From the NCBI GenBank assembly GCA_025930755.1, contig JAICOJ010000011.1, forward strand, positions 1 through 58,401: 58,401 nt of DNA. The letters run 5' to 3'. A program made the translations under genes and the position numbers. Position 1 is the stretch's first letter, and each line of letters opens with the position of its first letter. This DNA comes from Gemmatimonadaceae bacterium. GTDB taxonomy: Bacteria > Gemmatimonadota > Gemmatimonadetes > Gemmatimonadales > Gemmatimonadaceae. Below the pieces are notes generated by a model. The model did not search any database. It saw nothing but the letters and a program-made list of their open reading frames with translations, and was not told the DNA's origin. Below, in pieces: positions 99 to 37,530 of the stretch.

Positions 99-110
99 TA
101 CCAACCCTTA

Positions 111-138
111 ACCCTCACTCCTGACTCCTGACCCCTCT
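111..138. repeat. Heptanucleotide tandem repeat at the 3' end of the EIIA gene
   Basis: Four 7-bp units, ACCCTCA CTCCTGA CTCCTGA CCCCTCT, run into the stop codon of the minus-strand EIIA gene at 137-139. The 13-mer CTCCTGACTCCTG at 118-130 recurs exactly at 26648-26660 next to the lexA stop codon. Confidence 0.7.
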
Positions 139-8360: not shown

Positions 8361-9150
8361 AATCCCGCAGCGTCGCACGTCGGATCGCGTCGCGCGCGTC
8401 GCGGCCGTCGGCGACATTCACTGCGGGGAGGAAGATCGAGGCGCCTTCCGCGATCAGCTCACGCGAGTGAACGACGATGCCGATGTCCTCGTTCTGTGTG
8501 GAGACCTCACGCGACGAGGGCTGCCTGCGGAATTCAGGACCGTCGTTGGCGAGCTCGCCGATGTGAAAACGCCGATCGCCGTCGTCCTCGGCAATCACGA
8601 CCACGAGTCGGGTCAGGCGAGCGAGGGGGAAGCCATTCTGCGTGACCGGGGAATCCATGTGCTCTCCGGCGATCCGTTTCACCTCAGCGAGCAGGTCGGG
8701 CTCGTGGGGACGAAGGGCTTCATGGGTGGGTTCGGGCGTGCCGCGTTGACGTCATTCGGCGAGGCGGAGACCAAAGCCTTCGTCAACGCCACGCTGGAGG
8801 AAGTGCAGCGTCTCGAGATGGGGCTCCGGCGCCTCGCGACACCCGTGCGCATCGCGGTTCTGCATTATGCGCCCATCGCCGGAACGGTCGCCGGCGAGCC
8901 CGAAGTGATCTATCCCTTCCTGGGCTGCGACCGGCTGGCGGAGCCGCTCGATCGCTATGATGCGACCGTGGTCTTTCACGGCCACGCACACACCGGCGCC
9001 TTCGAGGGTCGGACCGCCGGCGGGGTGCCCGTCTACAACGTTTCGTTACCGGTGCTTCGGAAGATCGGGTTACCGACGCTGTACTATGTGCACGAGGTAG
9101 AGTTGCAAAGCGCTGGACGAGCGCTGGGAAAAGCGCTGGAAAGGCGCTAG
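8338..9150 (+). CDS. Metallophosphoesterase (calcineurin-like)
   Basis: 270 residues. All five metallophosphoesterase motifs are in order: GDIHCG near 25, GDLTRRG near 56, GNHDHE near 86, HYAPIAG near 180, and HGHAHTG near 218. These residues hold a two-metal centre that hydrolyses a phosphomonoester or diester. The substrate is unknown; the overlap with the nucleotidyltransferase-like gene hints at a nucleotide or RNA end. The C-terminus SAGRALGKALERR is encoded by repeated AGCGCTGG units. The ATG at 8338 lies inside the preceding gene. It converges on ppdK. Confidence 0.87.
   Translation: MPVSAISEIPQRRTSDRVARVAAVGDIHCGEEDRGAFRDQLTRVNDDADVLVLCGDLTRRGLPAEFRTVVGELADVKTPIAVVLGNHDHESGQASEGEAILRDRGIHVLSGDPFHLSEQVGLVGTKGFMGGFGRAALTSFGEAETKAFVNATLEEVQRLEMGLRRLATPVRIAVLHYAPIAGTVAGEPEVIYPFLGCDRLAEPLDRYDATVVFHGHAHTGAFEGRTAGGVPVYNVSLPVLRKIGLPTLYYVHEVELQSAGRALGKALERR
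9109..9150. repeat. Direct repeat AGCGCTGG at the end of the metallophosphoesterase gene
   Basis: AGCGCTGG occurs at 9109, 9120 and 9132, with a variant GGCGCTAG at 9143 containing the stop codon; the spacing is 11-12 nt. The copy at 9132-9140 can pair with TTCCAGCGC at 9182-9190 across the convergent gap. The function is unknown; it could be a transcript-end structure. Confidence 0.6.
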
Positions 9151-9206
9151 AAACGCACAGCCGACTCGGTTTGCAGCGCTGTTCCAGCGCCTATCGCGGC
9201 GCGTGC

Positions 9207-26603: not shown

Positions 26604-26631
26604 AGGGGCGAGGAATAGAATCCTCGCCCCT
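26604..26631. terminator. Bidirectional terminator between trpD and lexA
   Basis: AGGGGCGAGGA (26604-26614) and TCCTCGCCCCT (26621-26631) form a perfect 11-bp stem with a 6-nt loop, placed between the convergent stops. On the minus strand the stem is followed by ATTTCTTTT, a fair T-run for lexA. The plus-strand side has no T-run. Confidence 0.75.
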
Positions 26632-26633
26632 CA

Positions 26634-26661
26634 TCCCTGACTCCCAGCTCCTGACTCCTGC
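26634..26661. repeat. Heptanucleotide repeat at the lexA 3' end
   Basis: Four units TCCCTGA CTCCCAG CTCCTGA CTCCTGC end 3 nt before the lexA stop codon. It contains the 13-mer CTCCTGACTCCTG found also at 118-130. Confidence 0.7.
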
Positions 26662-36030: not shown

Positions 36031-36042
36031 GACGAACAGGGG

Positions 36043-36113
36043 CCGAGGAACGAGGAAGCGGCGGGGAGGCTCCTGCGTGCAGGAGTCGACTCAGCCATTG
36101 CCTCGTTCCTCGG
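36043..36113. terminator. Nested inverted repeat between the chemoreceptor-like gene and the NFACT gene
   Basis: CCGAGGAACGAGG (36043-36055) is exactly complementary to CCTCGTTCCTCGG (36101-36113), 13 bp. Inside it CTCCTGC (36070-36076) pairs with GCAGGAG (36079-36085). No T-run is present on either side. It lies between the convergent stops and its right arm is also coding sequence. It may end transcription in both directions. Confidence 0.55.
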
Positions 36114-37530
36114 TCCTCGTTCCTCGTAGCTTCCGCTCGAGCTCGGGACTCGGCCTCGCCATGACCGTCTGTGCCCGCTCCACGAGTGCGCGGCCGGGCG
36201 GGCCGCCACGCGCGCGACGTACGTGGCGCCGGCGCGTCCAGTCGACCGGAACCACCACACTGCCGCGCGCACGACTGTACCACGCGGCGAGGGCCGCGGC
36301 CTCGTGGAGGTCGCGCGCTGGCGGTGCTCCCTCCTGCGACCACCGCATGACGACGTGGGCCCCGGTCACGTCCCGCGCATGCAGCCACACATCGTCCGGC
36401 TTCGCGATGTCGTACGTCAGCTCGTCATTGGCACGAGCGCCTCGTCCGACGAGCACTTCGATTCCGCCTGACGTCCGATACGATTTGTAGGGCAGTCGCG
36501 TGGGCGCCGCCGGCGATCGCGTCCGGGTCGCGCGCGGTCGCGTCGCATCGGCCGGCGCTTCCGGCTCGTCCTCGAGCGCCGCGATGCGCGCCGGCAGCCG
36601 TTCGAGCGCGCGCTCCATCGCCCGCACTTCCTTGTAGAGGCGCTCGGCCAGCACAATCGGTGTCTCTCGCGGATCGTCGGACCGGGGCACCGGCGTCTCC
36701 ATTCCGTCCGCAAGCACGATCGTGGCGGGTACCTCCGCCTCCGCGCCGAGCGCCATGAGGGCATCCGCGACCTCGCGCAACCGCGGCGCCTCACGAGCGC
36801 GTTCGAGCTCCCGGCGCATTCTCGCGATCGCGCGGGACATCCGCGCTGCTGGTTCCCTCGCCTCCACGGGTTCCCCAGCGGGCGGTGATATCAGCGATGC
36901 GACGGGCTCCCCGTCGCACAGCGGCAGCGGGAAGACGACCTCTCCGCAGCGAACAGGGGCCGCCGTGGGCAGCGAGACGATGAGTCGGTAGCGATCGAGC
37001 GCGCGCTCCGGATCTGCCAGCAGCGCGGCGCACACTGCCGGGCTCATCCATCGACCGCGCAGGAGTGCGCCCTCGTCGCGCGTGGCCACCGCCGCGCGAA
37101 TCGCTTCGTCGTCGAGCACGCGGCGCGGCTCCGCGGCCGCCGGCAGCGGCGTTCCGATCGTGGCCAGCGCGTGGCGCGTGTCCCGGATGCGCGCGCCGCG
37201 AGCGTTCGGCACGAAGCTGATCTCGATATCGCCCTGCTTCGAAGCGGAACCGCGAAACTTTCCCGGGCGGTCGCACCGAATGGTGAGGCGACGGTCGTCG
37301 ACGGGCGCCGCGACGTCCACGATCGACCAGCGCCTGAGCAGCTCCCCCGCGGGTTGGCCCTTGTCCTCCCGAATGGTGAGCGCGCGCAGGTCGAACGAGA
37401 CCGCGGGGGTTCCCTCGCACCACAGGGTGAGGACACGCGACAGATGATCCGCGCGACACGCGACGATGCGCCGCCCGCGCCACCGCTCGCCGAGCTCGCG
37501 CGCAACGTAGTGCATGGTGAGACTATCCAT
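36091..37530 (-). CDS. NFACT family protein (RqcH/fibronectin-binding A-like)
   Basis: 479 residues; typical RqcH has about 570. The N-terminal NFACT-N domain starts MDSLTMHYVARELGERW and has the Asp-Arg pair (79-80, in DDRRLTIRC) needed for tRNA use in RqcH. The C-terminal NFACT-R domain, near YKSYRTSGGIEVLVGRGARA and DVWLHARDVTGAHVVMRW, is intact. The middle coiled coil appears reduced and replaced by an Ala/Arg/Pro-rich linker. RqcH-type proteins add alanine tails to stalled chains on 50S subunits; a shorter coiled coil might change subunit contact. The last residues (LRGTRTEERGNG) are encoded by the heptanucleotide repeat at 36101-36128. The start ATG at 37530 is preferred to 37515. Confidence 0.83.
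   Translation of the reverse strand: MDSLTMHYVARELGERWRGRRIVACRADHLSRVLTLWCEGTPAVSFDLRALTIREDKGQPAGELLRRWSIVDVAAPVDDRRLTIRCDRPGKFRGSASKQGDIEISFVPNARGARIRDTRHALATIGTPLPAAAEPRRVLDDEAIRAAVATRDEGALLRGRWMSPAVCAALLADPERALDRYRLIVSLPTAAPVRCGEVVFPLPLCDGEPVASLISPPAGEPVEAREPAARMSRAIARMRRELERAREAPRLREVADALMALGAEAEVPATIVLADGMETPVPRSDDPRETPIVLAERLYKEVRAMERALERLPARIAALEDEPEAPADATRPRATRTRSPAAPTRLPYKSYRTSGGIEVLVGRGARANDELTYDIAKPDDVWLHARDVTGAHVVMRWSQEGAPPARDLHEAAALAAWYSRARGSVVVPVDWTRRRHVRRARGGPPGRALVERAQTVMARPSPELERKLRGTRTEERGNG
36101..36128. repeat. Heptanucleotide tandem repeat in the NFACT 3' end
   Basis: Four 7-bp units, CCTCGTT CCTCGGT CCTCGTT CCTCGTA. Its length and place at a minus-strand 3' end match those at 111-138 and 26634-26661, but the unit differs. 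Here it is inside the coding sequence, just before the stop. Confidence 0.8.

What the first reader, a model, noticed from the sequence alone, without database searches (positions are those of the whole stretch)
111..138. Heptanucleotide tandem repeats at 3' ends of three minus-strand genes
Four-unit 7-bp repeats occur at 111-138 (EIIA), 26634-26661 (lexA) and 36101-36128 (NFACT). Two share the 13-mer CTCCTGACTCCTG and the third has CCTCGTT-type units. Two end at or within 3 nt of a stop codon; the third lies inside the last codons. This looks like a dispersed repeat family or a 3'-end signal.
Basis: seen in the sequence. Interest (0 to 1): 0.5.

Follow-up and report, generated by a model that had tools for sequence, protein, structure and literature searches.

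The report
Repeat-armed elements at gene ends
Short 7-letter repeats at the ends of bacterial genes look like the arms of small hairpin-forming elements that, in their complete form, carry a gene of the little-understood S23 four-helix-bundle family, linking two unexplained features of bacterial genomes.

Summary
In its genome (G000, 4.27 Mb, Gemmatimonadaceae) the two 14-mers occur 187 and 217 times; their reversed controls 0 times. Arrays usually form inverted pairs around a GC-rich hairpin core and start at stop codons. Several unit families coexist, and a congeneric genome often has a different unit at the same junction.

New link: all 10 PF05635 genes (23S-rRNA intervening-sequence protein, "S23", four-helix bundle) in G000 sit in such arms (8 both arms; 2 at contig ends, one arm visible). 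Across the order, 85 of 94 S23 genes lie inside an inverted repeat versus 1 of 250 control genes; 48 of 99 have matching tandem arms versus 5 of 648. Cyanobacterial plasmids and other phyla agree. Unit length tracks the S23 tree. ORF-less copies share ends with S23-coding ones.

Best reading: the heptamers are arms of intergenic relatives of 23S-rRNA intervening sequences, mostly ORF-less derivatives. Mobility, the protein's role and any terminator function are inferred.

The parts
103..138 (-). right arm (unit CTGACTC / AGGAGTC, family F1) abutting the stop codon of the EIIA gene (137-589 -); two GC-rich hairpins precede it at 34-62 and 71-97; no left arm seen
   Evidence: minus strand 1-139 folds at -67.4 kcal/mol, z -2.3
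26604..26631 (.). hairpin core AGGGGCGAGGA..TCCTCGCCCCT downstream of lexA
   Evidence: z -2.9
26634..26661 (-). degenerate right arm (F1 units) 3 nt from the lexA stop codon; no left arm
36042..36057 (+). left arm of the NFACT-end element (GAGGAACGAGGAA, family F2)
36058..36100 (.). hairpin core between the F2 arms, with inner stem GGCTCCTGC..GCAGGAGTC
   Evidence: 36035-36135: -61 kcal/mol, z -5.6
36101..36128 (-). right arm (CCTCGTT)4, family F2; it runs into the 3' end of the NFACT reading frame (stop at 36091)
9107..9193 (.). probable fourth element of the same build with 11-nt units (AAAGCGCTGGA) and an inverted partner (CAGCGCTGTTCCAGCGCC), at a convergent junction
   Evidence: z -2.7

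Best explanation
The heptamer arrays are the arms of small inverted-repeat elements related to the 23S-rRNA intervening sequences (IVS). A complete element is: purine-rich tandem array (unit 7 nt, sometimes 8 or 9) - one gene for an S23/IVP four-helix-bundle protein - the same array inverted. Most copies in this genome, including the window's three, have lost or never had the gene and hold a GC-rich hairpin core instead; they are the ORF-less (MITE-like) members. They occupy spaces between genes, mostly beginning at stop codons, where the RNA of either strand can fold into a long stem; this would spare the neighbouring genes and could serve as a two-way terminator or RNase III site. Arm number changes by slippage. 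Shown: the inverted arms, the position at stop codons, the S23 association with controls, shared ends of S23-coding and ORF-less copies (F1 and F4), unit length tracking the S23 tree. Inferred: that the elements move, that the S23 protein recognises its own arms and acts in trans on ORF-less copies, slippage, and the effect on transcripts.
For: G000: 10 of 10 PF05635 genes have arrays beside them (8 both arms, 2 cut by contig ends with one arm), of units F1, F2, F3, F4 and 9-mers. Order-wide: of 99 distinct S23 loci 73 have an array within 350 bp, 48 have matching inverted arms; non-S23 genes 3/351, 2/153, 0/144 (Fisher 7e-42). Any inverted repeat across the gene: 85 of 94 S23 loci with enough flank, 1 of 250 control genes. 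Plasmids: 8 of 14 fetched loci matched, 11 of 14 any array. Genomes of other phyla chosen for the F1 27-mer: 18 of 20 have PF05635, 0 of 14 controls; of 30 S23 loci there 30 have an array, 18 matched, against 12 of 522 control genes. Shared ends: ACGGCA-type terminal sequence in 8 of 8 aligned F4 ends (one S23 element, three ORF-less); F1 S23 elements share about 45 nt with the 14 core-B ends aligned, of 21 found. Unit vs protein: 47 locus pairs with identical unit average 58% S23 identity, 4324 others 35%, 0 of 300 permutations; unit length needs 14 changes on the tree, shuffled mean 22.7, 0 of 500; order-only set, not chosen for repeats, 9 vs 17.5. Coxiella IVS: S23 ORF in a 28-bp inverted stem with tandem heptamers GACAGAT (PMC4990558). 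Folding: z -5.6 to -17.8 for five two-armed elements.
Against: No target-site duplication, clean empty site or excision was shown; in 11 aligned junctions of G001 the site mostly holds another palindrome, and one F3 element is simply absent there (gain or loss unknown). 51 of 99 S23 loci have no matching tandem arms by the scan and 26 no array at all, though 39 of the 48 testable loci without matched arms still have a plain inverted repeat. Family F5 (GGATTGC) has no S23 partner among the loci seen. The F1-armed S23 proteins of G000 are only 34-40% identical to the F1-armed clade of other phyla, and label F1 needs 6 changes on the tree, so the unit is not strictly tied to the protein. F3 cores look like ordinary terminators. 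Only 2 of 113 F1 loci elsewhere have an S23 ORF beside the array. Core A has no S23-coding counterpart seen. No RVT_1 gene in G000, so no copying enzyme is known.
Confidence: 0.8

Rival explanations
1. Plain simple-sequence repeats: heptamers expand by slippage and become inverted by template switching at palindromes; S23 genes merely tolerate the same intergenic niches.
For: Heptameric SSRs are over-represented in many bacteria (PMC4692102); F1 arrays elsewhere are mostly without S23 ORF (2 of 113 beside one).
Against: In relatives whose samples hold almost no heptamers S23 genes still carry arms; the arms fit within a locus (41 of 99 at <=1 mismatch) far better than across loci (38 of 1060 pairs); 1 of 250 control genes has an inverted repeat across it; ends outside the arrays are shared.
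Confidence: 0.12
2. They are only bidirectional transcription terminators that were selected at convergent genes.
For: Convergent junctions over-used; F3 and F4 cores are GC stems with T runs (L035:18740, z -17.8; L032:3860, z -9.2).
Against: Cores A and B have no T run; 23 of 46 sampled elements are between tandem genes and 5 between divergent ones; it does not explain the S23 gene inside the arms. A terminator role can coexist with the best explanation.
Confidence: 0.25
3. REP/BIME elements moved by a RAYT transposase.
For: Dispersed, palindromic, at gene ends; core A is a mosaic of exchangeable hairpins.
Against: One Y1_Tnp gene in 4.27 Mb, with no period-7 array or F1 unit in the 3.3-kb locus around it; GTAG/CGTC tags were not looked for.
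Confidence: 0.04
4. Chance repeats in a GC-rich genome.
For: Window alone: 3 arrays against 2.66 expected.
Against: 187 and 217 copies against 0 in controls; 75 arrays against 1-3 in shuffles.
Confidence: 0.01

Closest known systems
23S rRNA intervening sequences (IVS) with S23 ORF, e.g. Coxiella burnetii (Warrier et al. 2016, PMC4990558; abstract, sections 16 and 19 and passages read)
   Same: S23 four-helix-bundle gene inside a long inverted-repeat stem; tandem heptamers next to the gene with copy number differing between strains; called selfish; origin and function called unclear
   Different: Here between or at the ends of protein genes, not in 23S rRNA; tandem arms on both sides; hundreds of ORF-less copies; many unit families
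GGGAATC heptamer repeats of Xanthomonas and GGGGA(C/T)T of Nostoc (Rehm et al. 2015, PMC4692102; abstract, section 10 and passages read)
   Same: Heptamers near stop codons, 70 and 75 inverted pairs in two Xanthomonas genomes, mostly intergenic
   Different: Explained there as quadruplex-forming SSRs, not linked to S23 (terms S23, four helix, intervening sequence: 0 hits); one unit type per genome studied, several here. One S23 gene in a relative (L359) has a GGGAATC arm, and X. campestris has a solved S23 protein (2gsc, XCC0516)
TAACTGA repeats of Beggiatoaceae and cyanobacteria (MacGregor 2015, PMC4679880; passages read; author name recalled)
   Same: Intergenic tandem heptamers shared by distant phyla
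   Different: Direct repeats mostly upstream of start codons, one inverted case; S23 not mentioned
REP/BIME and MITEs (recalled; PMC3733652 seen in a listing only)
   Same: Short palindromic repeats between genes; ORF-less copies sharing ends with a coding element
   Different: No RAYT found with them; IS transposases not searched for

Membership tests
IVS (23S rRNA intervening sequence) elements | S23/IVP (PF05635, TIGR02436) reading frame | tested here: met
   complete forms only: 10 genes in G000, TIGR02436 E 1e-32; absent from the ORF-less copies, the window's three included
IVS (23S rRNA intervening sequence) elements | long terminal inverted repeat | tested here: met
   85 of 94 S23 loci
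IVS (23S rRNA intervening sequence) elements | location inside 23S rRNA | tested here: not met
   the sampled elements lie between or at the ends of protein genes; hence 'relative of', not 'is', an IVS
IVS (23S rRNA intervening sequence) elements | excision from RNA by RNase III | not testable with these tools
   needs RNA
Heptameric SSRs (Rehm type) | tandem 7-nt units, near stop codons, inverted pairs | tested here: met
Heptameric SSRs (Rehm type) | G-quadruplex-forming G runs | not tested
   by sequence, units F2 (AACGAGG), F3 (AACTGCG) and F4 (AATTCAG) hold no run of three G; no quadruplex prediction was run
REP/BIME with RAYT | RAYT (Y1_Tnp) gene flanked by the repeats | tested here: not met
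   the single Y1_Tnp locus has no such array
MITE | ORF-less copies share terminal sequence with a coding partner | tested here: met
   F4 and F1/core B
MITE | target-site duplication / empty site | tested here: inconclusive
   11 junctions aligned with G001: one absence, no duplication seen

The most novel reading that the evidence does not exclude
A widespread class of mobile element whose only protein is an S23 four-helix bundle that recognises its own tandem-repeat arms. It has spread between phyla, spawns ORF-less copies at gene 3' ends, and is the source of many of the unexplained heptamer repeats of bacteria (cyanobacterial STRRs, Xanthomonas GGGAATC) as well as of the 23S rRNA intervening sequences.
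Probability: 0.4. Interest if true: 0.92.

Novelty: new variant of a known kind. Interest (0 to 1): 0.8.

Why it matters
Two old puzzles may be one. The function and origin of IVS elements are called unclear in the 2016 paper, and heptameric repeats were described as little studied in 2015. If S23 genes are the coding members of repeat-armed elements, both become testable: bind S23 to its arms, watch for new copies, delete an element and map 3' ends. It also warns annotators that arrays can rewrite the last codons of genes and break assemblies. Neither of the two heptamer papers mentions S23, and ten library searches listed no paper whose title or abstract joins heptamer arms at gene ends to S23 genes; the Coxiella paper notes heptamers beside S23 in the rRNA element only, as far as the parts I read show. 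The library lacks most subscription journals.

Tried and rejected
RAYT/REP: one Y1_Tnp gene, no arrays beside it. Reverse transcriptase: no RVT_1 in G000. Hammerhead ribozyme (core A holds CTGATGAG): looked at by eye, the order of motifs does not fit; Rfam was not run. Phase variation: not pursued, arrays lie at 3' ends. Same heptamer inverted in other phyla: of 113 F1 loci held, 80 were scanned and 8 have the same unit inverted within 400 bp; several others have another pyrimidine-rich heptamer instead. A first attempt to pull S23 proteins by position picked wrong frames and was discarded; one search replaced it.

Thresholds and selection: array score thresholds of 8, 9 and 10 were used in different calls. 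The five big G000 contigs sampled were chosen because they held F1 hits, so densities from them may run high. Of the S23 places found I scanned 99 loci in all (39 given by searches, 60 asked for by place), not every one. S23 loci L388-L417 come from genomes chosen for the F1 27-mer. 14 of 27 plasmid records were fetched; 8 of 14 is the strict count (further ones look armed by eye only). In one search, 124 of the 129 S23 loci entered (the others too short or with a stop) and only those with units counted. A Fisher test used counts off by one; one search repeats it with the right ones. Palindromic flanks in L052 and L059 at contig ends are probably assembly fold-backs. G001:C92 is 100% identical to G000:C136:1-14322 and may be a misbinned contig; it was not used in the junction comparisons.

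Full report
WHAT IS IN THE WINDOW. The genes were checked: PTS EIIA_2 (PF00359), LexA (PF01726, PF00717) and an NFACT-R domain protein (PF05670). The lexA array has one degenerate unit. From the window alone the count is no more than chance (3 against 2.66 in shuffles). The NFACT site is complete: left arm 36042-36057, core, right arm 36101-36128, folding at -61 kcal/mol, z -5.6. The EIIA and lexA sites show a right arm beside GC hairpins and no left arm. A fourth site, 9107-9193, has 11-nt units at a convergent junction.

THE GENOME. The window is G000:C180 of a 4.27-Mb assembly in 275 contigs. One relative of the same family, G017, has an S23 gene within 3 bases of the place found in the Gemmatirosa kalamazoonensis replicon NZ_CP007129, so the family is taken to be Gemmatimonadaceae. 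CTCCTGACTCCTGA occurs 187 times and CCTCGTTCCTCGTT 217 times, reversed controls 0. In a 428-kb sample (window plus stretches of five large contigs chosen because they held hits) exact arrays of period 7 number 74 against 37 of period 6 and 3 of period 8, led by units ACTCCTG (F1) 26, AACGAGG (F2) 16, AACTGCG (F3) 10, ACCCCTG 6, AATTCAG (F4) 3 (periods 4 and 5 gave 122 and 47 mostly short GC-rich runs at that length limit). With a stricter, tolerant scan there are 75 arrays of period 7 against 1-3 in shuffles.

ANATOMY. Arrays come as inverted pairs around a core. F1 has two cores: A, two GC hairpins joined by CTCATC(A/T)GATGAG and bracketed by GGAAAGG/CCTTTCC, with hairpins exchanged between copies; and B, a long imperfect stem. 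F3 and F4 cores are GC stems followed by T runs. Core A also occurs in G001 with 9-nt arms (L083, L133), so core and arms can be combined differently. Of 46 elements in the sample 27 have same-unit inverted arms; 16 are at convergent, 23 at tandem, 5 at divergent junctions, 2 at edges; the convergent share is above that of junctions (53 of 362), p 1e-4. Edges facing stop codons: 38 of 57 within 15 bp, median 4; facing starts: 10 of 33, median 34; p 0.001. In eight edges the offset is -2, that is, two bases of the stop codon are the start of the array, as in TAGGAGTC. Gene calls are from my own simple caller, so junction types carry some error.

TURNOVER. G001, the only other genome of the genus found, has 47 F1 14-mers; 3 of the other 39 relatives have 1 or 2, the rest none. 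Syntenic stretches are about 77-86% identical. At 11 aligned junctions G001 mostly has another palindrome: at four of them arms of GGATTGC (F5) stand where G000 has F2 or F3, and in one case the element is absent (L038:7340). Four G000 loci with F1 align along their length with G001 loci that carry F1. So places persist while units change.

THE S23 LINK. The F1 element at L038:13181-13704 holds a 128-aa frame between its arms: TIGR02436 four helix bundle, E 1e-32, with a weak match to the retroelement protein Avd. A search for PF05635 gave 10 genes in G000, and each has an array beside it: F1 twice, F2 twice (both cut by contig ends, one arm each), F3 twice, F4 once, 9-mers three times. Of 60 genomes of the order 49 have PF05635. 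I scanned 99 distinct loci: 73 have an array within 350 bp, 49 on both sides, 48 with matching inverted units (41 at <=1 mismatch); ordinary genes give 3 of 351 in G000, 2 of 153 in G001 and 0 of 144 in eight other genomes; arms match across loci in 38 of 1060 pairs. By inverted repeat alone, 85 of 94 S23 loci qualify and 1 of 250 control genes. Units differ between elements; period 7 leads (89 arrays), then 8 (28) and 9 (13). The left arm is purine-rich in 83% of 99 arms, the right in 21% of 92.

OTHER PHYLA. Of 20 such genomes 18 have PF05635, of 14 control genomes none; these controls are well-known organisms, so this is suggestive only. Of 30 S23 loci from them all 30 have an array, 24 both sides, 18 matching; control genes on the F1-selected contigs 12 of 522. 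On plasmids, not chosen for repeats, 8 of 14 loci match strictly, among them Trichormus variabilis with TCAGAAT and Aulosira laxa with TCAGGAG arms, the F4 and F1 words. Some sit between operon genes such as cas10 and cmr3 or cas6 and cas4.

ARMS AND PROTEIN TRAVEL TOGETHER, IN PART. Locus pairs with an identical unit have S23 proteins 58% alike on average (47 pairs) against 35% (4324 pairs), 0 of 300 permutations. On a tree of 137 proteins (111 columns, many forks unresolved) a 12-row clade (SH-aLRT 97) holds 8 of the 10 F1 rows and close variants, from cyanobacteria, a Geobacteraceae MAG, Desulfotruncus, a planctomycete and a lentisphaere. Unit length changes 14 times against 22.7 in shuffles (0 of 500), 9 against 17.5 within the order set not chosen for repeats. 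But F1 needs 6 changes, and the F1 proteins of G000 are only 34-40% like that clade: the same word also arose, or was taken up, elsewhere.

CODING AND ORF-LESS COPIES SHARE ENDS. In F4 all 8 aligned ends (S23 element L278 and three ORF-less copies) begin with ACGGCA..GA.G, outside the heptamers; in F1 the four ends of L275 and L276 match the 14 core-B ends aligned (of 21 found) for about 45 nt including the run TCAGGGGG beyond the array. This is what a coding element and its deletion derivatives would show.

HOW IT LIKELY WORKS. Inference: the element is tolerated because its RNA is a stem between genes; the purine-rich 5' arm could also act as ribosome-binding site for S23 (AGGAG before the start in L383); S23 binds the arms and helps copying with host enzymes. 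G000 has no RVT_1 gene and one Y1_Tnp gene without arrays, so the copying enzyme is unknown. The Coxiella IVS, with S23 frame, 28-bp inverted stem, RNase III cutting and GACAGAT heptamers of variable number, is the nearest described thing; its authors list a mobile-element origin as one old hypothesis.

LIMITS. No experiment, no insertion caught, no duplication of target. Genome G001 is 81% complete. The literature search was limited to one open library.

Noticed in passing
window 36091-36130: The F2 array is translated as the last codons of the NFACT-domain gene; repeat arms can rewrite protein C-termini.
   Followed up: partly
window 9107-9193: 11-nt tandem units (AAAGCGCTGGA) with inverted partner at a convergent junction: same build, other unit length.
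   Followed up: partly
L051, L052, L055, L059 (contig ends of G000): Many G000 contigs end inside or near these elements, and L052 and L059 have fold-back flanks: the repeats probably break the assembly.
   Followed up: no
L135 (G001:C92:17862-32183): 100% identical to G000:C136:1-14322 while other syntenic stretches are about 77-86% identical: probably a misbinned contig, ending in the repeat.
   Followed up: no
L082:19560 (G001): An F1 array lies inside what looks like a long reading frame rather than between genes.
   Followed up: no
L378, L385, L386: S23 genes sit between CRISPR-associated genes (cas6-cas4, cas10-cmr3) on cyanobacterial plasmids.
   Followed up: no
L189, L206, L223, L241: In other phyla an F1 array is often followed by a different pyrimidine-rich heptamer array (CCCTATT, CCCAATA, GTCAACT, GACTAAT), so left and right arms need not match.
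   Followed up: no
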